DNA of 32,802 nucleotides. Origin: Eubacteriales bacterium (lineage in GTDB: Bacteria; Bacillota; Clostridia; Oscillospirales; Acutalibacteraceae). The stretch lies in NCBI GenBank assembly GCA_030533225.1, contig JAUNJO010000016.1, forward strand, positions 1 to 32,802, read 5' to 3'. The notes under the pieces were generated by a model that searched no databases, was not told the DNA's origin, and was given only the letters and a program-made list of their open reading frames with translations. This document shows positions 1,313-26,567 of the stretch, piece by piece (the first letter of the stretch is position 1; every line of letters begins with the position of its first letter). Made by a program: the position numbers and the translations under genes.

Positions 1313-2068
1313 GAGTAAACAATTTTCGTTGATTTACAGATTCAAATATAATCCGTGCGCCTAACCGAAATCTCTCTATTGCGGTTCGTGTGTTTTTCAA
1401 AAGTTTATTTCTGTTGAGCGTTTTAATATTCGCTTATTTACAAATCAGCTTGATTCAACCGGGATAACTGCACCGTCGTAATCTTTTCGATAAACTGCCT
1501 TGTCGGAGAGACTCAACAAGAGTCTTTATGGTTGGATTGTCATTAACCTCACAACGAACAGTTATGATGTTTGCGTAAGGATTGTTTTCATCACATTTTC
1601 TATGTGAAGCTTTGTTATGTTCTCCAAACAAAAATGTTAACCTTAGACTTATTTTTTCAATCAGTGGACGGAGAACAACAAAGGTTTTCCGTCCGTATTT
1701 ATGTTGGTATAGTTTAAGAAAAACAGTTGTCTCATAAACAAATAAATGCAGGCGTGAGTCCTGCTGTAGGCTCAAGAGGAGTTATGCACGAAATCTCATT
1801 AAGGAGACATCGGAATTATGAATTTAATATTTACTAAGATACTGGGGCATAATTTCAGATTCCGACGAATGTTCCGATGCTGTAATTAAAGAAGTGCTGA
1901 TTTAATCAGTAAATACTTGAATTTGACATGACATAAAATCAGTTATTTGCGGCAACTAAAATTTGCCTGACTATACTGAATCTGATTAATAGCTTGGATT
2001 GAAGATTCAGTGTTTTTACATTCAGATTTTTATCAGTTTGAAATATTTATCCTTACGAGCAGTCAGCA
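1313..2068. other. Long stretch of degenerate DNA, no supported gene
   Basis: A minus-strand frame of 106 codons (1455-1775) has no ribosome site, no recognisable motif and a biased composition, so I do not call it. At 1801-1905 on the plus strand, AAGGAG is followed by an ATG at 1818 and the start MNLIFTKILGHNF. A one- or two-base shift would continue it as DSDECSDAVIKEVLI and a stop, so a small dead ORF may be present. Otherwise I see nothing definite. Confidence 0.35.
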
Positions 2069-3800: not shown

Positions 3801-4625
3801 TCACTCCGTCAACGTTTTCAATGCAGTTATAATCTGACTGTATTCAATGTCCGCAGCATAAGCGAATTGCTTACGGTACTTATCCCACATTGTTACAAGT
3901 TCCTTGCTTTCTTCAATATTTTTCAGAATACCAGGCACATCTGCAATCTGCTGCGTAGTTCCACGATGGTTTGCAGTTGCCCTAAGTACGTCTACAAAAA
4001 CATCCTTGTCAAAATTCTGTGTTTTAGACAGTATGTAGGTATCGTAAAAATCTCTGGGACGAGTATTGAACACACCACGCCTTAAAACTGTTTCAACCTT
4101 CTCAGCCAAAACAGTTTCGATGTTGTATGCCCACAGTTCGTAGGATTGTTCACCATCAAAGATTTCGGTAAAACTGTACTGCACTGCATAAGGCGTAATA
4201 GCATCTCCGGTAGACACATCAATACTGAGCGGTGTCAGCAGAGTATCAAACTTTGCACTGAGCATAACCCGGTACCCACCATAAATATCATCTTCACGAA
4301 TAGGAGAAATTGCGCCTATCTCAAATAAAACCCCATCATCAAATTCGATGTTACAAATATCTTCCAATGCACTGCGGATCGCTTCGGGCGTGAGAGGAAG
4401 ATTTTTGAGAGTAGTGTCCATATCCATAGTTGCACGATTATCCAGCCCCACAATAGCCGCTACCAACATACCGCCCTTTAGCACAAACTTCTCTTTATAT
4501 TCAGAAACAGATAGACGAACAAGCAGACGCTCAAACATATAGTTTTGTAAAATAACCTGTGCAGGTATGTTTTTCTCCTTTGCAACATTGCGAATTTTTG
4601 CTTTTAAGCTCATTGCATTACTCAC
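3801..4625 (-). CDS. abiEii: AbiEii-type nucleotidyltransferase toxin
   Basis: This is a toxin of the type IV AbiE toxin-antitoxin and abortive phage-infection system. The 274-aa protein shows the DUF1814/AbiEii fold markers in order: KGGMLV (50-55), R.T.D.D as RATMDMD (64-70), the strand IDVSTGD (135-141), the helix ETVLAEKVETVLRR (170-183) and RPRDFYD (189-195). These are the nucleotide- and metal-binding elements expected of an active nucleotidyltransferase, and none is missing. Family members transfer nucleotides to RNA substrates such as tRNA ends; the target here is not known. The start is GTG at 4625, overlapping the abiEi stop by 4 bp (GTGA) with GGAGG 7 nt upstream. An alternative ATG lies 12 nt later. 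Expression is probably coupled to and repressed by AbiEi. Confidence 0.93.
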   Translation of the reverse strand: MSNAMSLKAKIRNVAKEKNIPAQVILQNYMFERLLVRLSVSEYKEKFVLKGGMLVAAIVGLDNRATMDMDTTLKNLPLTPEAIRSALEDICNIEFDDGVLFEIGAISPIREDDIYGGYRVMLSAKFDTLLTPLSIDVSTGDAITPYAVQYSFTEIFDGEQSYELWAYNIETVLAEKVETVLRRGVFNTRPRDFYDTYILSKTQNFDKDVFVDVLRATANHRGTTQQIADVPGILKNIEESKELVTMWDKYRKQFAYAADIEYSQIITALKTLTE

Positions 4626-5215
4626 AGAAGCACCTCCAGATACTGATGCAGAACATTTGACACACGCATTTTCTTTGCATAAGCATTTAATTTATTTAAA
4701 TCCTTTTTAGGGTTAGCTGCATATAGCTTTAAAGCTGAGAGGAATGTTTCCGTTCCAATTCTATTGCGACTGCGAATCACATCGCAGATGGTTCGCTCTA
4801 AATCGTATGTGGGAACATCATTACCGGCAGGTGTTTTCAGTACTGTTTTACCAAGCTCAAATAGTTCCGGTTTGATGTAATACACCTTGCATTCAGATTT
4901 AATTGAAGCAGAAGGAATACAACCCGATGGTGCAGTAATAGTATGTTCAAAAGGAGTTCGGTCTGAAATTCCGTGAAGAAAAAGTGCAGTTTCATGAGAA
5001 AAAATAATATTCGCGGAACGCTTGCTGATAGACAGTAACTCGTCCTGCATATCATCAGGCAGTATGTACTGGCCTTTCACAATGCGATGTATTTTATTTT
5101 CTTTGCATAGTTTACAAAGCATCGCTTTAGAAATCCCATGCTCAGCCGCTATTTTTGTTTCAACAATTCCGCCATGAGATTTCGCGATTGCGGTTAATTC
5201 AGCTATATAATCCAT
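4622..5215 (-). CDS. abiEi: AbiEi-type antitoxin and transcriptional repressor
   Basis: The 197-aa antitoxin partners AbiEii. The N-terminal winged helix spans about residues 3-55 (IAELTAIAKSHGGIVETK, then HGISKAMLCKLCKEN and HRIVKGQYIL). The C-terminal antitoxin domain contains FSHETALFLHGISDRTPFEH and YDLERTICDVIRSRN. In characterised AbiE systems this protein neutralises the toxin without a tight complex and represses its own promoter through repeats. I start it at the ATG at 5215 (MDYIAELTAI), because GGAGGTG lies 6 nt upstream; the frame stays open 20 codons further but would overlap the promoter. It is the first gene of a four-gene operon. Confidence 0.92.
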   Translation of the reverse strand: MDYIAELTAIAKSHGGIVETKIAAEHGISKAMLCKLCKENKIHRIVKGQYILPDDMQDELLSISKRSANIIFSHETALFLHGISDRTPFEHTITAPSGCIPSASIKSECKVYYIKPELFELGKTVLKTPAGNDVPTYDLERTICDVIRSRNRIGTETFLSALKLYAANPKKDLNKLNAYAKKMRVSNVLHQYLEVLL

Positions 5216-5246
5216 ACATTCACCTCCGACGACTCCATTCAATAAT

Positions 5247-5275
5247 ATTGTACCCACAATTACGACGAAAGTCAA
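5247..5275 (-). promoter_or_regulatory. Promoter of the AbiE operon
   Basis: On the minus strand, TTGACT (5275-5270), a 17-bp spacer and TACAAT (5252-5247) form a near-consensus sigma-A promoter about 32 nt before abiEi. The 8-mer GTCGTAAT lies in the spacer (5266-5259) and again at 5321-5314. Such direct repeats are candidate AbiEi binding sites. Confidence 0.8.
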
Positions 5276-7355: not shown

Positions 7356-7880
7356 TTATATCTCAAAGCTATCCGTTATACCCACAAGCCTTGAGTTATC
7401 TCTTTTCACATAGTACATCTCGGTAATCTGTGAAGTACTGTGTCCGAGAAGGTCACCTGCTTGTCTTGGTGTGAGGCATTTTATTGTACCGTCAGGTTGC
7501 TTTACACCATTAACAAGATTGGTTGCGAAGGTGTGGCGGAGTGAGTGTAATCCTTTGGTTTCTATTCCTGCGGCTTTGAGGATTCTGTAATAGCGTTTGC
7601 GGAAGTTGATCGGTCGGGTGAAGTTACCATTTTCATCGGGTATCAGCGGTGAATCCTCACCGAAGTAAAATTCATTCCTCAGGTCGAGTATCATCTCTAT
7701 TGCCGTATCGTTCAGCGGTACATCTCGTTTGCTTGTTGCGCTTTTGAGTTTGCCGACCTTCACTTCTCGTCCTTTTTCTGCTGTGACGCCGTCACGCTTT
7801 GATATTTCTATTACACTCCTGTTCAGGTGCATAACCCTGTTTTCAAGGTCGATGTCGCTGTTGAGCAGTCCGAGCATTTG
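7356..7880 (-). pseudogene. Tyrosine recombinase (integrase), C-terminal fragment
   Basis: About 175 residues of a phage-type integrase catalytic domain remain. Visible are LHSLRHTFATNLV (the H-x-x-R box), DLLGHSTSQITEMYYV (the His and the nucleophilic Tyr) and KRDVPLNDTAIEMILDL. The first catalytic Arg box, usually G-L-R-R-S-E, is degraded to S-Y-H-R-S-Q right at the breakpoint near 7880. The N-terminal SAM-like and core-binding domains are gone. Upstream of the break the DNA is a group II intron in the opposite orientation. The fragment has no own start with a ribosome site and should be inactive. Its frame has no internal stop, so the loss is younger than that of the copy at 837-1108. Confidence 0.9.
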
Positions 7881-7881
7881 A

Positions 7882-8192
7882 GAACGATGATAAGAGTGAT
7901 AATTTGGAAGCAATGGAAAACAGCAAAGAAAAGAGAATGGGGATTACTCAAACTCGGAGTACCAAAATGGATTGCACAAAAAGTGGCAAACTGGGGAGAC
8001 CATTACCAATTTGTAGCAACAAAATCCGTTTTGGCGAGAGCAATTTCAAAAGAAATACTGACCAAGCGAGGCTTAATCAGTATTTCGGACTACTACCAAA
8101 AGGTAGCACATATTTAATTTTGAATTGAACCAACCTGTGCCGAACGGCACGCACGGTGGTGTGAGAGGGCGGTTAACTCCGCCCTACTCGAT
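7882..8192 (+). mobile_element. Group II intron 3' fragment (maturase end plus domains V-VI)
   Basis: The frame 7882-8114 encodes the tail of an intron reverse transcriptase/maturase: RVIIWKQWKTAKKREWG, LGVPKWIAQKVANWG, then ISDYYQKVAHI and a stop. The IWKQWK and LG.PK.(x)A...AN boxes are typical of the thumb/DNA-binding end. It is followed by a short stem GTGCCG-aa-CGGCAC (8135-8149), the string CGCACGGTGGTGTGAGAGG, the stem GGGCGG-ttaact-CCGCCC and CTACTCGAT, which I read as domains V and VI ending at 8192. The 5' part, including domain I and most of the maturase, is missing, so the intron cannot splice or move. Immediately after it, repeat copy 3 resumes at the point where copy 1 follows its terminator. 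Confidence 0.82.
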
Positions 8193-8397: not shown

Positions 8398-10548
8398 TTA
8401 TTTTATTTTAGGTTCGCCGATAGGATAACCTGTTCCGATACCTGCGATGTGTTTCTGAATTGCGGTTGCGTCCTTGACATTGACGGAACCCGAACCGTCA
8501 ACATCTGCCACCTCATAACCTTTATCGGAAAGAGCGACAATTTTTGCTATGTGCTTCTGAATGGCGGTAGCGTCTTTGATGTTTATGTTTCCGTCAAGGT
8601 TTACATCACCGCATTTGACATTTGCCGGGTCAACAAACTTAATATTATTAGCTTGTGCATATTCTTCTGCATAGGAACCTGTGCTTCCGAGGATAAGCAT
8701 ATCCTCAGGACACCAATCAAATGCGTTTTCTCCTATATATGTCACAGAATCCGGGATTGTTATCTCGTCAAGTGAAGAACAACTGCGGAATGCGCCTTCG
8801 TCAACGGTTGAAACTGTATCAGGGATAACCACACTTGTGATATTGGTGTTATCAAAGGCTTTGACGCCTATATAAGTGAGATTCTGAGGCAGTAAAAGCG
8901 TTTCAAGTCCGGAAGACCCAAAGGCTCTGTAACCGATTTCGGTGATACCCTCGGGAAGAATTGCCTGAGTAATGCCGCTTGCGGCAAAGGCTTCATCTTC
9001 AATAACCTTAAGATTTGCAGGGATGTTTACCTCTGCAACGCAACCGTAGAAAGCCCTGTAAGAGATTGTCTCAACGGAATCGGGAAGCGCAACCTCATCA
9101 AGACTTGAGCAAGACTGAAAAGCTTTCTTGCCGATTTTTGTAACTCCGTCATATACTGAGTAGTTTGTGATTCCGTTTGCCATGGGGAAGTAAATAAGTT
9201 CAGTTTTGTCTTTGTTATAAAGAACACCGTCAACACTGCAGTAGTTCTTGTTGTCTGAAGCTACATTTACCGCTTTCAAACTGCGGTTCAGTTCAAAAGC
9301 TTCGCCGTCAATATATTTTACAGAGGAAGGAATGTTCAACTCTTTCAGCCATACACAATTGGAAAAAGCGTTTGCACCTATGTTCTCAACGGAATCAGGC
9401 AGGAGGATTTCTTCGAACATTCCGCCATAAAAAGCATAGTCACAGATGGTTACTGTTGCTTCATCTACTGTGCAGACTTTGTCCGTCTTGTATCGGGGAT
9501 ATGAGACAAGAGTTTTCTTATCCTTGCTGTAAAGTACACCATCAACGCTTGTGTATGCGGGATTGTCCTCGTGAACATTGAAAGCATCAATAGGAACCAA
9601 CAGGTATTTCCTATCAATCACGGGCATAGTGATTTTGGTAACACTTGCAGGGATATTAATGGTTTTTTGATTTGAATACAGACCATAGAAGAAACTGTCG
9701 CCCTCAATACCTGTAACAGGCATGCCGTCGATAGTATCGGGAATGTTCACTTCTGTGCCTTTTGTCTTAAAGCCCGTGAGGATTACATTTCCGTCAACTA
9801 CCTTGTAAGTCCAATCGATGACGGGTTCTTTAATATCTCCGTATCCGTTTCCCCAATCAAGGGTAAAACCGTCAATATCTCTGATGATTCTGTCTGCTGT
9901 CTGCTCGGAAATACCGAGAGGTCCGATAATATCATCAATTAGCTGTTGGTCGGTTTTACCGGATTTTTCCTGTGCGGTGGTCAGGTCATTTTTCAGAAAA
10001 GAGGCAAACATTTTCTCGTTTGTCTGGGAATACTCGGATTTGCATGTACCCACAATATTACCTGTGGAAGAAATCATCATAACGGGACCTAATTCTTCAG
10101 GGGCTTTGTTTTCCCAAAAAGCAACATAGGCAGTTGTTTTGAGGTAATTGTACGGATGTTCGTAGAGTGTGCCGTCACAATAGGCTGTGAGTCCAAGGGT
10201 GTCATTTCTCAGCATGAGAGGATGAGTCTGTTTTCCCGTGTCTGAACTGAAAGTTACAGCACATTCATCCGTGATTTCAATACCCGCCTCGGATAAATCA
10301 TAAGCATAAAGATTACCCTCAACCTGTGTGCATTTTTCTTTCTTGTGCTGCCAATCGTAAAAAGCAACGCCCGTATCCAGCTTGGATATATGACAGTAAA
10401 CACGGTTTGTGTATTCCCAACTGTCGGGGACTCTGAAATACAGGATGTTGCCGGAGCTTGAATCTGTGTCAGCAGCGCTTACGCCTACAACGGCACAGCT
10501 CATAATACAGAGGATTGCCAGCAGAAAAGCCAATAATTTTTTGTACAC
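8398..10548 (-). CDS. Secreted BspA-type leucine-rich-repeat protein with C-terminal dockerin
   Basis: The 716-aa protein begins with a signal peptide (residues 1-25, hydrophobic core LLAFLLAILCIMSC, cut near VSA-AD). Residues 30-235 form a beta-rich module (ILYFRVPDSW, VYCHI, YAYDLSEAGI) resembling starch-binding-like modules of Ruminococcus dockerin proteins, by memory only. Residues 245-640 carry BspA/LRR_5 repeats of the type IP.SV..I...AF..C..L....IP. Residues 646-704 are a type I dockerin with two calcium loops, DVNLDGNINIKD and DVDGSGSVNVKD, each followed by ATAIQKHIA. A dockerin plugs the protein into a cohesin-bearing scaffold outside the cell. I start at the GTG at 10548, with AAGGAG 8 nt upstream; a GTG at 10557 overlaps that site. 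It probably binds rather than cleaves glycans, since no catalytic domain is seen. Confidence 0.9.
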   Translation of the reverse strand: MYKKLLAFLLAILCIMSCAVVGVSAADTDSSSGNILYFRVPDSWEYTNRVYCHISKLDTGVAFYDWQHKKEKCTQVEGNLYAYDLSEAGIEITDECAVTFSSDTGKQTHPLMLRNDTLGLTAYCDGTLYEHPYNYLKTTAYVAFWENKAPEELGPVMMISSTGNIVGTCKSEYSQTNEKMFASFLKNDLTTAQEKSGKTDQQLIDDIIGPLGISEQTADRIIRDIDGFTLDWGNGYGDIKEPVIDWTYKVVDGNVILTGFKTKGTEVNIPDTIDGMPVTGIEGDSFFYGLYSNQKTINIPASVTKITMPVIDRKYLLVPIDAFNVHEDNPAYTSVDGVLYSKDKKTLVSYPRYKTDKVCTVDEATVTICDYAFYGGMFEEILLPDSVENIGANAFSNCVWLKELNIPSSVKYIDGEAFELNRSLKAVNVASDNKNYCSVDGVLYNKDKTELIYFPMANGITNYSVYDGVTKIGKKAFQSCSSLDEVALPDSVETISYRAFYGCVAEVNIPANLKVIEDEAFAASGITQAILPEGITEIGYRAFGSSGLETLLLPQNLTYIGVKAFDNTNITSVVIPDTVSTVDEGAFRSCSSLDEITIPDSVTYIGENAFDWCPEDMLILGSTGSYAEEYAQANNIKFVDPANVKCGDVNLDGNINIKDATAIQKHIAKIVALSDKGYEVADVDGSGSVNVKDATAIQKHIAGIGTGYPIGEPKIK

Positions 10549-10586
10549 AAAAAACACTCCTTTGATATTTTTATATTTTTATAATT

Positions 10587-10615
10587 AATATACCATCCAA
10601 ATTCTACGGTTTCAA
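10587..10615 (-). promoter_or_regulatory. Promoter of the dockerin/LRR gene
   Basis: TTGAAA (10615-10610), a 17-bp spacer and TATATT (10592-10587) on the minus strand, 39 nt before the GTG start. Confidence 0.65.
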
Positions 10616-10624
10616 CGATAATGA

Positions 10625-10657
10625 CAAAATTGACATCGTTTATTGCAAAATGACATC
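10625..10657 (-). promoter_or_regulatory. Direct-repeat operator candidate upstream of the dockerin/LRR promoter
   Basis: On the minus strand GATGTCATTTTG (10657-10646) and GATGTCAATTTTG (10637-10625) repeat with a 20-bp period, just upstream of the -35 box. A similar pair stands between the two other dockerin genes (22468-22500). Paired repeats two helical turns apart suit an activator dimer such as a LytTR-type regulator, but the regulator is unknown. Confidence 0.45.
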
Positions 10658-10753
10658 AGTTTCCGCCGTGGTTTTCATTTTGACTGTCAGAGCATCCTGC
10701 AGAACAGGATAACGCTAAAATCAAAGAAATAATCATTGCAATTGACTTTTCAT
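10656..10753 (-). pseudogene. Possible frameshifted small lipoprotein
   Basis: After GGGGGAATGAAC an ATG at 10751 reads MKSQLQ and stops. One extra A in its run of As would instead give MKKSIAMIISLILALS, then CSAGCSDSQNENHGGN and TGA at 10656. This is a lipoprotein-like signal with a Cys, truncated to 32 residues. As it stands the gene is broken, or never was one: -3 of the supposed lipobox is Ser, which is poor. It lies directly after the ncRNA terminator. Confidence 0.25.
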
Positions 10754-10765
10754 GTTCATTCCCCC

Positions 10766-10988
10766 AAAAAATAAAAAGTGTGTACAACCGAAGCCGCACA
10801 CACCGAAAAACGCAAACTCCGATTGTTGTCACACAAAACTTAACAAGCATAGAGAAAACTCTACTCATTCGTCAAGTGGAATTTGCATTTTTACCAAATT
10901 CATTATTGACGAATAAGCATAGGGATTAAACCCTCTATAATAAACAGAGAGTCCTCTCGCATTGCTTGTTGCTTTAGTTTTGTGTGAC
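10766..10988 (-). ncRNA. Structured non-coding RNA gene, 6S-like rod
   Basis: Transcription from the promoter at 10995-11023 would start near 10988. The RNA folds end to end. Closing stem: TTGTCACACAAAAC (10990-10977) with GTTTTGTGTGACAA (10839-10826), 14 bp perfect. Then AACAAGC with GCTTGTT, and a large internal bubble whose 3' side holds a small hairpin TAGAG-aaaa/tttt-CTCTA (10864-10851). The end stem is ATTCGTCAA with TTGACGAAT (10914-10906 with 10875-10867), capped by GAATTTG with CAAATTC. A terminator stem ACACAC/GTGTGT and a T-rich tail follow (10803-10766). A closing stem, a central bubble with a small 3' hairpin and a terminal stem are the layout of 6S RNA, the RNA polymerase inhibitor. 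Sequence consensus was not checked, and the 5' side of the bubble can also form hairpins. It has no coding frame. Confidence 0.65.
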
Positions 10989-10994
10989 AATAAT

Positions 10995-11023
10995 ATTATA
11001 CCGCTTAACTTTTTGTTTTACAA
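10995..11023 (-). promoter_or_regulatory. Promoter of the structured RNA gene
   Basis: TTGTAA (11023-11018), exactly 17 bp, then TATAAT (11000-10995) on the minus strand. The predicted start falls at the first bases of the closing stem of the RNA, which supports a dedicated RNA gene. Confidence 0.75.
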
Positions 11024-11067
11024 GAGGAATTATGAAAAACAGGTTAGAAATCCTCCGCAAAAGAGAA

Positions 11068-11105
11068 AGGACTGCCCGTTTATTTGCGGAGCAGTCCTGT
11101 TTTAT
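11068..11105 (-). terminator. Terminator downstream of the V-ATPase operon
   Basis: AGGACTGC (11068-11075) pairs with GCAGTCCT (11091-11098), extended by CCG/CGG inside. On the minus strand it is followed by TTCTCTTTTG and on the plus strand by GTTTTATG, so it could act both ways. CTCCGCAAA (11053-11061) can alternatively pair with TTTGCGGAG (11083-11091), which would disrupt it. Confidence 0.65.
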
Positions 11106-11150
11106 GGGTGTTTTCGAAATTTATTTGATGCTTTTTGATGCTTTTGATAC

Positions 11151-19939: not shown

Positions 19940-22372
19940 TCAGTTTTGTTCCTCTGAGCAGTAATACCACTTTCCTCCGGTCTTGTTGCCTGCATTTGCA
20001 CGGTAGCAGTTCATATCCTCCTGAACAACCATGTTTTCCGTTTGATTTTCCCAACCTGTTTGTGTATCCTTAAACAGGAAACATTCCGTTCCCGTCATAA
20101 GAGGCTCCGAAAAGGTGTAGTACCAAAGGTCTGTGCCTTCGATATTCGTCATCATGACGGCTTCCCCCTCAAGACCGCTTCCCGTCCAGCCGTAAATGTA
20201 CACATTCTGCCATTTTGCGACGGAATTATCAAAATAAACCCTCGACAGTGTGTAGTCGGAAAGAGGCTCATCACAGTACGGCTCAAACCAAACTGCTCCG
20301 TCGGTTGTGAGCCTTATGCAGTTCAGGTCTTGGGAGAGTACGGCGTCCCAAGCGGTATAGACATTTCCGCCGTTTTCGGTGATTGTTACGGGCGGCTCCT
20401 CCACAACACCGCCGAAGCGGTAGAGTGAAACATCTTTAAGGGACTTTGGCACCTCTGTTTTGTATGTGTATGGCTGCAAAGCGGAAATCTGCTGAAACTC
20501 GTAGCTTTTTCCGGTACTCAGGTCATAGACATAGAAATGCACTCCCTGTTGTGTTATCCAGTTGAGACAGGTCTTTATATACAGGGTAAATGTTTCTTCC
20601 TCAATAGGACTTTCAGGCTCATAAATCTGACCTGTAAGTCCGCATCCCTTGTCAAAATCCGCCAGATACTTTTGAATACAGGTAACATCCCGAACAGATG
20701 TAACTCCGTCCCCGTTTACCTCGCAAAGAGGCAGAAGCTCCTCGGGAATCCTTACAATTTCGGCAAGGTGCTTGCTCAAATGTGTGCAGTCTTTGATGTC
20801 AACTTTTCCGCTGCCGTCTGCGTCACCGTAAATCATCTTTAAGGCTTCGTCGGGGGAGGAGATACCGGTATCAGAATGGCTGACGAAGATTGCTTTCGCG
20901 TTTTCGTCACCGAAATTTTGCAGTATCGTTTCACCCACATCCTTTGTGAATCGGGCACAGTAAAGGGTTTTACCGTTTCTTCCCAGATAACGGTTAGAAA
21001 ACTGTAAATAAGTGTTAGAGTCATACTCGGCGCCTTGATTTTCTATGGAGCTGTAGGTTTCGCAAAGGTATGTTTTTGCCATTGCAAACAGATTGTTGCT
21101 TATATGAAAATTTCCTTTATTCTGATTTGCATGAGTCCAGCTCTTTATGTGAGCGTCTCCGCCCTTGTCGGGCCTTTGTGAGCAAAGTCCGTAGCCTGCA
21201 TACCACATGTGATTACCGCTTACGGTAAAATTCCCGAAATCGTTGGCGTTATTCTTGCCGTAATCCAAAAAGTACTCGATAGAATAGTTGCAGTATTCCA
21301 TAACATTATTTGTGAAATTAATGTTGTCGCAGTGCACCTCGTTATTCGACTCTCCCGAAAATTGGAAAGTCACCGCCGCATCGTAAATCTGACTGAAATA
21401 GCAGTTATCCACGGTAAAGTTTTTGGCTTGTCCCCAGATCTGAACACCGTTTCCGAAGCGGACGGAGCCGTACTGAATCGAACCGCCAATCCAATAAAAC
21501 TCGCAGTTTTGTACAGTTAAACCCTCACAGGCCAGTGCGCTGACCGCAAAATTTCCGCTGTAGCGGAAGGTGAGATTGTCTACGGTAATGTTGTTGCTCC
21601 ATTTTGTTTCGATAATATCTATGCCCTCGGCAAATTCAATGCTGTCATACAAATCTGCCGGATTACCGCCGGAGCAGTAAAGATAAAGCTCCTTTGTACC
21701 GCTTGAATCATGAAAGAAATGCAGATTATCTTCAAGGTCTTTATAGGAATAAAACTTTTTATCCGTGGTTCTGTTATAGGTCACTCCGAATTTTTCTTCC
21801 ACAACACACTTGATGCCGCAAAATTCTCCGTTGTTAAATATTATGTTGCCCACATCTTTGCTGATTTTTTCCGAATATTTGTAGATGTTCGGCACATCGG
21901 TTTCTATCCACTCACCAAACTCGGCATAATTGTGTGACGAACCGTAGAGTTCGGGCTTTTTTCCTTCACCGTATGCCGAATAGGAAATCCCGGAGGTATA
22001 GGCCTTAATACTGCCTCGCCAAACACCGCCGCGCTCAAAATATACAACATCTCCTGCCTTCAGATTGAGTCTGTTTACCGCAGAAACGGTGGCTATTGGC
22101 TCATCGGGAGATAATCCGTTATTATTATCGTCACCCATGCCCGAGACATAATACGCAGTACCTCCCTTTGAAGGCTTAATTTCTGTGTCGGTGTTATGTA
22201 TATTGTTTATTCGCGTCTCGGTATCTTTGTAGAAGTTATCCAATACTTCCTTTTCGCTCAGTGTTACATTGCTCAGCTCATCAGACGAACTGTCCTCGGC
22301 AAAAACTGTTGTGCCGAGCAGTGCCGATTGCAGTAAAACAAGGACTGAAATTACGCTTATGATTTTCTTCAT
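19940..22372 (-). CDS. Secreted beta-helix protein with internal dockerin and starch-binding-like modules
   Basis: The 810-aa protein has a signal peptide (residues 1-25, MKKIISVISVLVLLQS, cut after VFA). A right-handed parallel beta-helix region follows (about 75-480; YYVSGMGDDNNNGLSPDEPI, ITVDNLTFRYSGNFAV, LTVQNCEFYWIGG), as in pectate-lyase-like or surface glycan proteins. A dockerin sits inside at 515-575 with loops DADGSGKVDIKD and EVNGDGVTSVRD (the second starts with Glu). Two C-terminal modules (about 592-690 and 710-805) look like CBM26-type starch binding (VYFDNSVAKWQNVYIYGW, LFKDTQTGWENQTEN). An internal dockerin is unusual, since most are terminal. I start at the ATG at 22372 rather than the GTG at 22381, which touches the ribosome site AAAGGAG. 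No catalytic residues could be assigned. Confidence 0.88.
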   Translation of the reverse strand: MKKIISVISVLVLLQSALLGTTVFAEDSSSDELSNVTLSEKEVLDNFYKDTETRINNIHNTDTEIKPSKGGTAYYVSGMGDDNNNGLSPDEPIATVSAVNRLNLKAGDVVYFERGGVWRGSIKAYTSGISYSAYGEGKKPELYGSSHNYAEFGEWIETDVPNIYKYSEKISKDVGNIIFNNGEFCGIKCVVEEKFGVTYNRTTDKKFYSYKDLEDNLHFFHDSSGTKELYLYCSGGNPADLYDSIEFAEGIDIIETKWSNNITVDNLTFRYSGNFAVSALACEGLTVQNCEFYWIGGSIQYGSVRFGNGVQIWGQAKNFTVDNCYFSQIYDAAVTFQFSGESNNEVHCDNINFTNNVMEYCNYSIEYFLDYGKNNANDFGNFTVSGNHMWYAGYGLCSQRPDKGGDAHIKSWTHANQNKGNFHISNNLFAMAKTYLCETYSSIENQGAEYDSNTYLQFSNRYLGRNGKTLYCARFTKDVGETILQNFGDENAKAIFVSHSDTGISSPDEALKMIYGDADGSGKVDIKDCTHLSKHLAEIVRIPEELLPLCEVNGDGVTSVRDVTCIQKYLADFDKGCGLTGQIYEPESPIEEETFTLYIKTCLNWITQQGVHFYVYDLSTGKSYEFQQISALQPYTYKTEVPKSLKDVSLYRFGGVVEEPPVTITENGGNVYTAWDAVLSQDLNCIRLTTDGAVWFEPYCDEPLSDYTLSRVYFDNSVAKWQNVYIYGWTGSGLEGEAVMMTNIEGTDLWYYTFSEPLMTGTECFLFKDTQTGWENQTENMVVQEDMNCYRANAGNKTGGKWYYCSEEQN

Positions 22373-22395
22373 ATCCGCCACATCTCCTTTTTCCT

Positions 22396-22425
22396 ATCAT
22401 ACATGATATTCTGTGTCCCGGTCAA
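22396..22425 (-). promoter_or_regulatory. Promoter of the beta-helix dockerin gene
   Basis: TTGACC (22425-22420), an 18-bp spacer and TATGAT (22401-22396) on the minus strand, 23 nt before the ATG. Confidence 0.65.
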
Positions 22426-22467
22426 TGGTTTTCGGATGCTTCGCACGGTGTTTTTTTTGCGGTATCG

Positions 22468-22500
22468 GTGTCGTTTTACACCGCTTTAGTGTCGATTTAC
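22468..22500. promoter_or_regulatory. Direct-repeat operator candidate between divergent dockerin genes
   Basis: GTGTCGTTTTAC (22468-22479) and GTGTCGATTTAC (22489-22500) repeat with a 21-bp period, midway between the divergent promoters. They resemble the GATGTCATTTTG pair upstream of the third dockerin gene (10625-10657). A regulator that binds paired half-sites two helical turns apart, for example LytTR-type, is a possible reader. Confidence 0.45.
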
Positions 22501-22565
22501 GCTTAACTGTTGAAACGAACGCAAAACTGTATTACCATGTCACTGCAAAAAATCAGTAATGATTA

Positions 22566-22594
22566 TTGACTTTTTATAATATAGGTATTATCAT
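22566..22594 (+). promoter_or_regulatory. Promoter of the 1290-aa dockerin gene
   Basis: TTGACT (22566-22571), a 17-bp spacer and TATCAT (22589-22594), leaving a leader of about 85 nt before the ATG at 22687. Confidence 0.55.
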
Positions 22595-22686
22595 AGTATT
22601 ATCCGAAATATGTCCATAAATATAAGTAAAATACAAGTATTCGGTTTTAAGAATTACCTATAAATTGTCATAGGAGGTTCGTGGAG

Positions 22687-25600
22687 ATGAAAAAAACAAA
22701 AAGGCTTTTTTCCTTAATCCTTGTTTTGGCGTTGTTTTTCTCAACCTTTGCAACGGCGAAATTCAGTGCGGCAACAACCGACACAAGGTATTCGCTAAAG
22801 CACATTCAAAACGGCGGCTTTGACGAAAATGTAGTTAATTACACATTTTCATCAAATTATTCTCAGCCGAAAAAAGAAGTAGTTCCCTATTGGGACACCA
22901 CGGCTTTTGAGGGAAAATTTGAGTTCTTCAAGGCCGGTTCTGCGCATTTTGATGTAACACGGAAAAAATATCCTAACAATCCCGAGTATATTAATGTAGC
23001 AGAAGGCGAGGTAGCCGCCGAGCTTAACGCCGATGAGGTAAGTACTATTTATCAGCTTATCAGCGAATCAATACTGTTGCAGGCTCAACCTACACCTGGG
23101 GACTTTACCACAGGGGAAGGGATGTTACAGACAGAATGGTGCTTATTATCGGTCCCGAACAGCCTGTTGATCCCTCAAAGCCTTCGAAAGCAGGAAACGA
23201 TCAGTTCGTAAGAATTACTAACTGGCTCAAGGCTCAGTACGGCATTGAATATCCTGAAATAGGCTGCTCACAGAAATTCACGGTTTATTCAAAGCCCTTT
23301 GCCGCCTCGGGAAAATTTGTGAACGAGGACACCAAGAATGAAAATAATAATATTTCCTTAGTTGAAACAGAGGAAATCAATCAGGAGTGGAGCGTTTGGG
23401 TTATCTCCTCTCCCTACTGCAACACCGCCGAGGAATATACCAAAAACGGCTGGTCTGCATACGGTATAAATGCAAATAACGATTTTGATGATATTATAAA
23501 GGGCGCCAGCAGCTCTTTGGGTTACGACTGCACCTATACCGTTCCCAAAGGACAGACTAATACAATCTTTGCATTCTGTTCTTACGCATCCGGCAAAGCA
23601 GACGGTACGGTAAACTCTACATACGGAAACCTTTTGGACGGAATTAATTTTGAGCTTTATCAGCCTTTTTCATCATCGACTACCCCCGGCGGTATCGGCG
23701 GTGCTGAAACCGACAATATAAAAATCACAAGCGGTATTACCCATAATAACTCTATGCATTCTGTTGTTCGTGACGGCGAGAACTGCACACTGTATACAAA
23801 AGCACACGATGATAAGCTTACAGACTGTACCTTCGTCGGAGCCTATGTAACAACGAGTAATTCCGACGGTACGGCTGTCACGGTATTTCGCGATATTTAC
23901 CAGGGAAGCATTGAAAATCTCACCGAGGAAGAACTGGACGAGCTTTCAAAAACATATTTTATAGAGAAGCCGTTTACTGATACGGATGGGGAAACATGGA
24001 GCTTTTATACCCAGATTTCCGTGGAATCCCCTATATCTATCCACTTGGTTTATACAAAGGCTCCCTATGTTTTGTACGATGCAAACGGGGGTATGGATTA
24101 CCGCTTCTCGCCCGATAACGAAATGGGCGGTAATTTGGTGGGCTTTGCCTACGCCTATCAAACCGTAGAAGATGAGAATGGCAATCTCATCGACACCTCC
24201 GACTATTACGAAAACTGTGTACACTCCACCGCCTCAAGTCCGGATGAACTGGTAGAGGTTATAAAAGAGGGCACATATAAATCTCATGCCGCATTGCCTA
24301 ACGAAAACTGGGAAAAGGACGAGGACGGCAGCAGCTGTGCCGAGTTCTGCGGCTGGAGTGTTTCCGACATAAACGGAAACAAAATCATACTTGACGGAGA
24401 ACACACAATAACATACAGCCCTGAAACAGGAAACGGCGGTATTATCAAAATAACAGACACCAAAAACAACATAAGCGATTTACAGCTGGACGCTACTCAC
24501 GGCGTAACCCTGTCTGCTGTGTGGAAATTTACAAACAGAGCACAGGCACAGACACTTAACGCAAGCGGTGAATTTGAAAACTCCGCTGTGGGCGGTACTG
24601 TTAAGGAAACTCTGATTTCCGATGACAAGAGAGACGAAGAGGTACGGGAATATGTTGACGGCAGCGGAAAAGTTGAGCGCGTTGACGCTTCCTGCACCGC
24701 CGGCGAAAAAATAATGTTCAAGGCAACTCCGGATTATCAGAACAACTATGCCTTTATCGGATGGTATTACAGAGAAAAGCAGGCTGACGGAACATACGCC
24801 GAGAAGCTTAGAACTACCTCAACCTCAATCGCAGTAACGGTTGAGGAGGGCAAGCTCAACACCTATTACGCAAGATTCCAGAAGCAGACCGTTTCCGTGG
24901 TATTCAAATATACCGAAACCGGAAGCAAGGATAACTACGATTTCTATTGCAAATCAGCCGAGCATCACTACGGTGCGTATTATCAGGAGGTTTTCCTGGG
25001 CAAAACCGCTGTGAAGCCTGACGGCGACCCCAAAAATGTTCAGAACTGGTTTACTTCTCCCACAGAAAGAAGTTCTGCCTATGTCTTTGATTTCAGCACT
25101 CCCATAACCAAAGAGACGGTGCTCTATGCCGGCCCGACATTCAGTTACAACTACTTAAACGGTTTTATGATAACAGAGCCGTGGAGAGTGGAAACATACG
25201 GAACAGTTAAGGTTGACGGCAAGTATATAGACTTGCTGAACAACCCGGATGTTTCGGATTACAATGTTTATATGCTCAAGGGAACACTGGGTCAGCAGAC
25301 ACCCACAGCCTCGGCTGTCAAGGGCAATAAGAACACAATCAAAGTCGGTAAGTCTGTAAACGCCGATAAGCTTCTCTATAATTCCCTTACTGCGGTAGGT
25401 TACAACTTTAACAGAGCGGGTGCCGCCTTCAGTGATTTCTATCTGTTTGATATGAAAACTCCTTTATGGGTTGTGTTTGATTTCACATATAAGGGCATTA
25501 GGTACACAAGTACGGTAAAAGACAGAAGCCTTTATAATGATATCACAACTTATATGGATGAAGGTATCAACGGATATTACACCACATTCCCCTATGATAC

Positions 25601-26567
25601 ACAGGTAGAGCTCAGAAAGGCGCAAACCGATTTGCTTTACTGCATCCAGGGCTTGTACGATGCGTCCCCGAAGGATATCACCGCGCCCTCCGTTTATGCT
25701 GACGGCGTTAAGGTAAATGAGTTAGCGTACAGTGAGTCCGGTGCAGGGGCATATACATTTGCATCAACAACCGCTATCAGAAACATCGAGCCTTGGGGCT
25801 TTAAGTATTCCTTTACGGTGGACGGCCATGATTTCTCGGAATTTTCCGACTACGGCGCAGTAGTGCTCACAGACAAGACAGGACTCTTTGAGGGAACACT
25901 CGGTGTGAACGACTTGCTAAGTAACGAAGAGTCGCTGATGTATTCAAAGTCAAACGGCAATATTTACAGCGATAACGGAGCAGCGGAAGTATATTATGTG
26001 AACAATTTGTTCGCAGTTGATTTCGATAAGAATACTTATGTTGTATTCTTCGTGAAGGATTCAGCAGGCAATGCTTATTTCTCCAACATCGTTTCGAATT
26101 CCTACAACGAACTTGCAGGTGATGACGGCTCAAGCGTCAGTACGGCGATTACTGCATATTCAGAGGCTTTAATCGTATATACCAACCTGATTGAAGAGGC
26201 AGAAAATGCCAAAGCCGAAGCAAATAACACAGCGAGCGTTTCTGCTCTGTCAAATACTCCTGTTGCAAAGATATCTGCTGCCCGAACGAGTGAGTTTGAG
26301 CCGGGTGATGTTGACCTTGACGGTAATGTAAATATCAAGGATGCAACTCTGATTCAAAAGGCTGCTGCCCATCTTGTGCAACTGAACGATGAGGCGCGCG
26401 GGCTTGCCGATGTCAATGCAGACGGCAAAGTTAATGTTTTGGACGCTACAACCATTCAGAAGTATTTAAGCGGAATCATCAAGGATTTAGGAGGTTCAGG
26501 CAAGCCCTCCGAACCCTCAAAGGCACCTGCCCAAAACGGTGAATGGGGCGAAGCAGTTGAGAATTGA
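22687..26567 (+). pseudogene. Large dockerin surface protein split by an 8-bp tandem duplication
   Basis: Two frames cover one gene: 22687-23211 (signal peptide MKKTKRLFSLILVLALFFST and the first module) and 23136-26567 (the rest). The break is TTATCAGC repeated exactly at 23049-23056 and 23057-23064. Dropping one copy joins STIYQ to RINTVAGSTYTWGLYHRGR and gives an unbroken 1290-aa protein. Residues 35-310 then form a CBM-like module (NGGFDE, VVPYWDTTA, AAELNADEVSTIYQ, YHRGRDVTDRMVLIIG). The middle has InlB-like beta repeats (TYYARFQKQTVSVVFKY). Residues 1203-1260 are a dockerin with loops DVDLDGNVNIKD and DVNADGKVNVLD, and a Pro/Ser-rich tail follows. The rest of the frame is clean, so the break is recent or switchable. 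AGGAGG is 9 nt before the ATG; a GTG at 22681 is too close. Confidence 0.88.

What the first reader, a model, noticed from the sequence alone, without database searches (positions are those of the whole stretch)
10766..11023. Promoter-to-terminator RNA gene folding into a 6S-like rod
A perfect 17-bp-spaced promoter places the start at the first base of a 14-bp closing stem whose partner lies 140 nt away. Inside are a second stem, a large bubble with a small 3' hairpin and a capped end stem, then a terminator. No coding frame explains this. It is either the 6S RNA of this lineage or a new structured RNA.
Basis: partly seen in the sequence, partly recalled or inferred. Interest (0 to 1): 0.75.

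Follow-up and report, generated by a model that had tools for sequence, protein, structure and literature searches.

The report
Portable RNA switch before secreted-protein genes
The window holds one copy of an RNA family that matches nothing in the Rfam catalogue, occurs in up to 20 copies per genome in many Clostridia, and sits mostly just upstream of genes for likely secreted proteins, where it is predicted to turn the gene on or off by choosing between two folds that break or make a transcription stop signal.

Summary
It lies on the minus strand: promoter 11023-10995, closing stem from 10990, a rod, and a terminator ending at 10766. The genome's 6S RNA is on another contig (81.8 bits, cutoff 46.4) and no Rfam family fits. 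A model of the 3' end finds relatives in 50 of 60 genus, 47 of 147 order and 55 of 243 class genomes, but in a phylum sample only the window's own (1 of 199). In 181 copies four helices recur: an apical hairpin (1:2) and antiterminator (3:4) exclude a pseudoknot (2:3) and terminator (4:5). Strand swaps and closest-pair contrasts show coevolution. A gene with a ribosome site starts within 160 nt in 96 of 116 and 46 of 60 copies, against 3 of 38 control terminators; 99 of 136 downstream proteins look secreted. Near-identical units sit between unrelated flanks. Best reading: a portable attenuator leader with unknown trigger. The window copy has no intact gene directly behind it, and there are no transcript data.

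The parts
10995..11023 (-). promoter: -35 TTGTAA (11023-11018), 17-bp spacer, -10 TATAAT (11000-10995)
   Evidence: In relatives a TANNNT hexamer ends 3-6 nt before the closing helix in 140 of 181 copies (no chance control for this offset was run).
10976..10990 (-). P1, 5' strand of the closing stem; start of the RNA predicted here
   Evidence: Contiguous closing helix of 10 bp or more in 170 of 181 copies, 68 of 181 with shuffled upstream sequence.
10841..10975 (-). rod with junction and side hairpins; largest interior loop has arms of 13 and 35 bp here
   Evidence: Fold; arms.
10895..10901 (-). strand 1: 5' arm of the apical hairpin (GAATTTG)
   Evidence: Hairpin -4.9 kcal/mol, 2 of 200 shuffles as good; hairpin of 5 bp or more in 120 of 121, 59 of 60 and 18 of 19 copies.
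10878..10892 (-). strand 2 (A strand): AAAAATGCAAATTCC; its 3' part is the 3' arm of the apical hairpin, the whole pairs with the tail
   Evidence: 15 contiguous pairs with 10820-10806, -18.5 kcal/mol, z -4.9.
10826..10840 (-). P1, 3' strand of the closing stem
10821..10825 (-). linker CAATC, part of the antiterminator
10806..10820 (-). strand 3 (tail): GGAGTTTGCGTTTTT; pairs either with strand 2 or, with the linker, with the terminator's apical half
   Evidence: Pseudoknot. Antiterminator: 10824-10811 with 10798-10786, -9.7 kcal/mol in the window copy; family test.
10777..10804 (-). strands 4 and 5: terminator hairpin with UUCG loop
10766..10777 (-). U tract of the terminator
10656..10765 (-). 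ribosome-site-like GGGGG and ATG, then a frame that stops within eight codons; a lipoprotein-like stretch follows in another frame, so no intact gene directly behind this copy
   Evidence: no ORF by the rule used.
8398..10557 (-). next gene downstream: protein with BspA-type LRR and dockerin domains, about 210 nt after the terminator, with a promoter-like site of its own at 10615-10587

Best explanation
Window 10990-10766 (minus strand) encodes one copy of a multicopy leader RNA family that is predicted to work as a transcription attenuator: two mutually exclusive sets of helices would decide whether RNA polymerase stops at the terminator or reads into the downstream gene. Five strands can pair in two ways. 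In the read-through state the apical hairpin (1:2) and the antiterminator (3:4, linker and tail with the apical half of the terminator) form. In the stop state the pseudoknot (2:3) and the terminator (4:5) form. Shown by sequence comparison: the helices are present, share strands and coevolve, and genes usually follow. Inferred: that they exchange during transcription, that the early local hairpins make read-through the default, and that a pause at the tail's U tract or an unknown effector favours pseudoknot and stop. Also inferred: promoter, RNA and terminator travel as a unit and put unrelated, mostly secreted-protein genes under one signal.
For: Pseudoknot: energy more than 2 SD below shuffles in 110 of 122 training rows, 56 of 60 later copies from other genera, 19 of 19 from the class search; own strands -15.3 against -12.6 +- 0.22 swapped (n=121) and -16.5 against -13.3 +- 0.34 (n=60), no swap of 200 reaching either. 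Antiterminator with linker: -17.0 against -14.5 +- 0.24 (n=121) and -18.1 against -15.3 +- 0.32 (n=60), no swap of 300 reaching either. Closest-pair contrasts, own better: pseudoknot 37 of 45, apical hairpin 47 of 55, terminator 52 of 57, antiterminator 41 of 53; controls 30 of 57 and 32 of 57, 25 of 50 and 24 of 56. ORF with ribosome site within 160 nt: 96 of 116 and 46 of 60 against 3 of 38 control terminators. Signal-like downstream proteins 99 of 136 against 37 of 171 other ORFs. Largest rod loop central in 81 of 165 copies, 43 expected.
Against: No transcript or probing data. The window copy has no intact gene directly behind it, its antiterminator taken alone is matched by 23 of 200 shuffles, and its rod arms are unequal (13 and 35 bp), so tail and tip would be hard to join in cis. 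A straight rod of about 35 bp (median) is too long for a linker of about 7 nt unless it bends. By the ORF rules used, 20 of 116 and 14 of 60 copies lack a gene within 160 nt. The antiterminator tested without the linker is only weakly supported, and the longer form was chosen after looking at copies. One contrast control was positive, its window overlapping the A strand. Two of four tandem modules in L219 have no pseudoknot partner. Downstream genes share no pathway, so no ligand suggests itself.
Confidence: 0.72

Rival explanations
1. A stand-alone small RNA: the product is the stopped RNA of about 220 nt, which acts in trans (or pairs between molecules, tail of one with the A strand of another); nearby genes are incidental.
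For: Each copy has its own promoter-like site and terminator; some copies have no gene behind them by the rules used (20 of 116 and 14 of 60); the straight rod would keep tip and tail apart within one molecule.
Against: Genes follow far more often than behind control terminators (46 of 60 against 3 of 38), often 15-35 nt away; tail and linker coevolve with the neighbouring terminator, which a trans role does not need.
Confidence: 0.15
2. A constitutive or processive antitermination element, or an RNA-stabilising leader, in which the helices do not switch.
For: Structured leader directly before a terminator and a gene; downstream genes too diverse for one metabolite.
Against: The same strands are conserved for two exclusive pairings in training and later copies, which a fixed structure would not need.
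Confidence: 0.08
3. A dispersed repeat (miniature mobile element) whose long inverted repeat only looks like an RNA gene.
For: Multicopy, several copies at contig ends; 82-92% identical units between unrelated flanks.
Against: Coevolution of overlapping helices in closest-pair contrasts shows selection on the RNA; bias to genes and to signal-like proteins. A transposase link or target-site duplications were not looked for.
Confidence: 0.04
4. The 6S RNA of this lineage or a second 6S copy.
For: Rod shape with start at the closing stem.
Against: 6S lies on contig C86; no 6S match here at E <= 10; up to 20 copies per genome elsewhere.
Confidence: 0.01

Closest known systems
6S RNA (RF00013)
   Same: About 200-nt rod with its own promoter, a closing stem at the start and a terminator.
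   Different: No match to the 6S model; true 6S elsewhere in the genome; multicopy, mostly before genes, with a switchable terminator.
Orphan riboswitch candidates with terminator platforms (for example the folate-linked weak candidate in PMC11109978, one passage seen, where a pseudoknot might block a terminator)
   Same: Structured leader, pseudoknot and terminator before a gene.
   Different: Here the pseudoknot would free the terminator rather than block it; the genes share no pathway; the unit is multicopy with its own promoter and moves between unrelated flanks.
trp-type attenuators (recalled)
   Same: Alternating pairing of neighbouring strands decides terminator or antiterminator.
   Different: Five strands instead of four, one pairing being a long-range pseudoknot across a rod; no leader peptide was seen (not systematically tested).
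EAR/epsC, put and LoaP-type antitermination RNAs (recalled)
   Same: Structured RNAs near the start of surface or exopolysaccharide transcripts that act on termination.
   Different: No Rfam family matches the element; here the RNA pairs with its own adjacent terminator.

Membership tests
6S RNA (RF00013) | Match at or above the family's gathering score | tested here: not met
   No match at cutoff in the window, none at E <= 10 in 10550-11150; the genome's match is G000:C86:6149-6336.
6S RNA (RF00013) | Long rod with a central bubble and closing stem | tested here: inconclusive
   Rod and closing stem present, but the junction here carries side hairpins and the tip pairs with the tail.
6S RNA (RF00013) | Binding to housekeeping RNA polymerase and product RNA synthesis | not testable with these tools
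   Needs biochemistry.
Transcription-attenuating leader (riboswitch-like) | Lies between a promoter and the gene on the same strand | tested here: met
   96 of 116 and 46 of 60 copies, 3 of 38 control terminators; not met by the window copy itself.
Transcription-attenuating leader (riboswitch-like) | Terminator with a mutually exclusive antiterminator | tested here: met
   (swaps in two sets and closest-pair contrasts).
Transcription-attenuating leader (riboswitch-like) | Condition-dependent read-through | not testable with these tools
   Needs RNA-seq or in vitro transcription.
Riboswitch in the strict sense | Direct binding of a small ligand or ion | not testable with these tools
   No ligand suggested by the downstream genes.
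Any RNA family of Rfam 15 | Match at or above gathering score to a copy of the element | tested here: not met
   Window and 20 loci at gathering score, 7 loci at E <= 0.5: the matches found lie outside the copies.

The most novel reading that the evidence does not exclude
A new class of regulatory RNA that is itself the mobile unit: a cassette of promoter, sensor and switchable terminator that has spread through Clostridia and plugs unrelated surface and secreted-protein genes, up to 20 per genome, into one signal, read by a five-strand relay in which the sensor's tip reaches back to capture the strand that would otherwise open the terminator.
Probability: 0.45. Interest if true: 0.88.

Novelty: new variant of a known kind. 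Interest (0 to 1): 0.76.

Why it matters
If right, one unknown signal sets part of the surface and secreted repertoire (LRR, dockerin, CHAP, lectin and lipoproteins) of many poorly cultured Clostridia, through an RNA that matches no Rfam 15 family. With hundreds of matches listed in these searches, the class is large enough to make its ligand or protein partner findable, and a portable regulator would show how bacteria can build a regulon by moving the control element from gene to gene.

Tried and rejected
6S RNA: rejected. Known Rfam families: none on the element. A first antiterminator model with only the tail and the 5' arm of the terminator was weak (some swaps reached the own mean; 36 of 53, p 0.013; better as a hairpin, 0 of 200 swaps). 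The window copy showed that the linker and the terminator loop plus 3' arm also pair; the extended model is strong, but its form was chosen after looking at copies. Triple-helix reading of the U-rich strands: dropped, because the tail is antiparallel-complementary to the A strand with G-C changes. A third contrast control was positive (35 of 50, p 0.007); its window overlaps the A strand in many copies, and two clean controls were null. A first hinge measure was confounded by apical loops (median arm difference 16 bp); one search replaced it. The closing-stem search picks the best register, so its swap score is inflated; one search has the shuffled control. Virus contigs: 0 exact matches to one strict pattern. 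Literature: listings and passages of PMC2864571, PMC11109978, PMC8632094 and PMC7266159 showed no such motif; PMC5737381, which I recalled as the id of the 2017 paper on 224 motifs, is not held.

Rows and overlaps: one search found 134 copies, 122 after removing duplicates; L099_1709, a stray terminator, was dropped later (121). L020 was lost by the pattern but is the same place as L060. The independent set is 60 of the 102 matches listed (the 70 best minus 10 already held or of the window's genome); one of the 60 (L184) is the same DNA as training copy L130. The four rows of L219 are left out of that count; two of the four show no pseudoknot. ORF rules differ: 40 codons or more, 80 or more and for the control terminators; tandem copies share a gene. 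One search stopped with an error and was replaced.

Full report
What is in the window. The element is on the minus strand. TTGTAA, 17 bp and TATAAT (11023-10995) precede a 15-bp closing stem (10990-10976 with 10840-10826), a rod with a junction, an apical hairpin (GAATTTG/CAAATTC), and a terminator hairpin (10804-10777) with a U tract to 10766. The RNA folds with z -10.3 (225 nt) and -11.0 (167 nt), 0 of 200 shuffles as good. The other strand folds nearly as well (z -9.8), as a long inverted repeat would, so promoter and terminator decide the strand.

Not 6S. The 6S covariance model finds one match in this genome, on contig C86, at 81.8 bits against a cutoff of 46.4. No Rfam family reaches its cutoff on the element, and at E <= 10 the nine matches to 10550-11150 are all below their cutoffs and do not include 6S.

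It is a large family. A DNA search found relatives in 19 of 59 genomes, the window's own included; the 3' end is conserved best. A model of that end (R1, 66 positions) matches 50 of 60 genomes of the genus at E <= 0.01, with up to 17 copies, and at E <= 1e-5 47 of 147 of the order and 55 of 243 of the class, with up to 20 copies. Of 199 genomes across the phylum only the window's own matched, a useful control against generic terminators. These samples overlap in the window's own genome and some relatives. An exact-pattern scan of named genomes gave 38 stretches; their titles name Ruminococcus, Eubacterium, Monoglobus, Clostridia, Eubacteriales and the like, several from goat, deer or reindeer samples. 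This genome holds one whole copy and one cut by a contig end; two weaker matches (22.2 and 21.1 bits) cover only the terminator part of the model.

The pseudoknot. In the window, AAAAATGCAAATTCC at the rod's tip (10892-10878) is fully complementary to GGAGTTTGCGTTTTT (10820-10806), just before the terminator. The pairing of tail and upstream region is more than 2 SD below shuffles in 110 of 122 rows, in 56 of 60 later copies from other genera and in 19 of 19 from the class search. Pairing each tail with the A strand of another copy costs 2.8 kcal/mol (n=121) and 3.3 kcal/mol (n=60); no swap of 200 reached the own mean in either. At tail position -2, A-U (57), G-C (47), G-U (14) and C-G (1) make up all 119 anchored copies.

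The apical hairpin. The same A strand is also the 3' side of a local hairpin of at least 5 bp in 120 of 121, 59 of 60 and 18 of 19 copies, so hairpin and pseudoknot compete for it.

The antiterminator. Linker and tail (CAAUCGGAG...) can pair with the apical half of the terminator (...CUUCGGUUG). Tested with the tail and 5' arm alone the result was modest. The window copy then showed a longer helix (10824-10811 with 10798-10786, -9.7 kcal/mol, although 23 of 200 shuffles do as well). With linker and loop included, own strands give -17.0 against -14.5 +- 0.24 (n=121) and -18.1 against -15.3 +- 0.32 (n=60), no swap of 300 reaching the own mean; 179 of 181 copies are at or below -10 kcal/mol. This would explain why the linker and the CUUCGG loop are conserved. 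Partner changes read: CAAAUGGGG with UUCCGUUUG, CAAACGGAG with UUCCGUUUG, CUAUCGGAG with CUUCGGUGG.

Relatedness. To keep shared descent from faking coevolution, 89 closest pairs were formed and strands exchanged only within a pair. Own strands fit better in 37 of 45 informative pairs (pseudoknot), 47 of 55 (apical hairpin), 52 of 57 (terminator), 36 of 53 (short antiterminator) and 41 of 53 (extended antiterminator). Unrelated strand combinations gave 30 of 57 and 32 of 57 and 25 of 50 and 24 of 56. One control was positive (35 of 50); its window includes the A strand in many copies.

The closing stem. A contiguous helix of 10 bp or more joins the start region to the segment before the linker in 170 of 181 copies and in 68 of 181 with shuffled upstream sequence (mean 14.3 against 9.4 bp). 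A TANNNT hexamer ends 3-6 nt before it in 140 of 181, as expected if transcription starts at the stem; this offset has no chance control.

What follows the RNA. An ORF with a ribosome site starts within 160 nt in 96 of 116 training copies (73 within 60 nt; ORFs of 40 codons or more), in 46 of 60 later copies (38 within 60 nt; 80 codons or more) and 14 of 19 of the third set (8 within 60 nt), against 3 of 38 (1 within 60 nt) control terminators in the loci of the second set. Of 90 downstream proteins, 31 have BspA-type LRRs, 8 a dockerin, 6 CHAP, 6 Big_2; ricin-type and C-type lectins, zinc-ribbon proteins, AMP-binding enzymes and PadR regulators also occur. A simple signal-peptide rule marks 99 of 136 downstream proteins and 37 of 171 other ORFs of the same kind of loci; the rule is home-made and approximate.

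Portable unit. Pairs of copies with 82-92% identical RNA over more than 200 nt often show no similarity on either side (for example L064/L104, L122/L146, L121/L142, and the window copy with L003). Identity begins near or a little upstream of the -35 and ends at the terminator or at the ribosome site. How it moves is unknown. L058 and L067 carry extra 3' halves in tandem and L219 extra tail-terminator modules.

Mechanism. Strands 1 to 5 pair either as 1:2 and 3:4 (read-through) or as 2:3 and 4:5 (stop). Shown: the helices, their exclusivity through shared bases, coevolution, and gene proximity. Inferred: exchange during transcription, the default direction, pausing at the tail's U tract, and an effector. 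A straight rod of about 35 bp (median) would keep the tail from the tip. The largest interior loop divides the rod into arms within 6 bp of each other in 81 of 165 copies (43 +- 5.5 expected for a random place), which would let many rods fold back. The window copy's arms (13 and 35 bp) are unequal, so pairing within one molecule is not proven; pairing between two molecules of the same locus is not excluded.

The window copy is not the best working example. Directly after its terminator stand a ribosome-like site and ATG, but the frame stops within eight codons and a lipoprotein-like stretch lies in another frame. The next gene, with LRR and dockerin domains, starts about 210 nt on and may have its own promoter. 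A 92% identical copy in a genome of another family (L003) has an intact 311-codon lipoprotein-like gene 18 nt after the terminator.

Print. Six full-text searches (listings seen) and passages from four papers show no such motif. Most subscription papers are not held and PMC5737381 was not available, so this is no proof that it is unpublished.

Noticed in passing
window 3801-5275, minus: AbiEii-type nucleotidyltransferase gene (PF08843, E 1.2e-41) with an upstream ORF (4622-5275) whose tested part has no Pfam match; looks like a type IV toxin-antitoxin pair (the pairing is recalled).
   Followed up: partly
window 7356-7913, minus: Phage-integrase-type recombinase ORF (PF00589), 185 codons, matching only the profile from position 39; possibly a fragment.
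   Followed up: partly
window 1703-1772, plus: tRNA-like match of 35.2 bits (cutoff 29) with unusual arms; could be a degenerate or unusual tRNA. ARAGORN was not run.
   Followed up: no
window 19940-26567: Two large dockerin proteins (19940-22381 minus, 23136-26567 plus) besides the LRR and dockerin protein at 8398-10557.
   Followed up: partly
L219:1524-1664 and 1868-2008: Two successive tail-and-terminator modules 7 nt apart, twice in a row; the second module of each pair has no partner for its tail upstream (z 1.2 and 0.6), as if a second terminator with the same design had been added.
   Followed up: partly
L058:1925-2234 (minus), L067:2233-2424 (minus): Units of about 120 nt (A strand to terminator, without a new promoter or 5' strand) repeated in tandem, three in L058 and two in L067, before a PadR-like gene (PadR among the matches).
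   Followed up: partly
L087:2330-2406, plus: A Gut-1 RNA (RF01706, 73.2 bits), listed in the 2010 paper as 'human gut only', lies near a copy of this RNA, on the opposite strand and not overlapping it.
   Followed up: no
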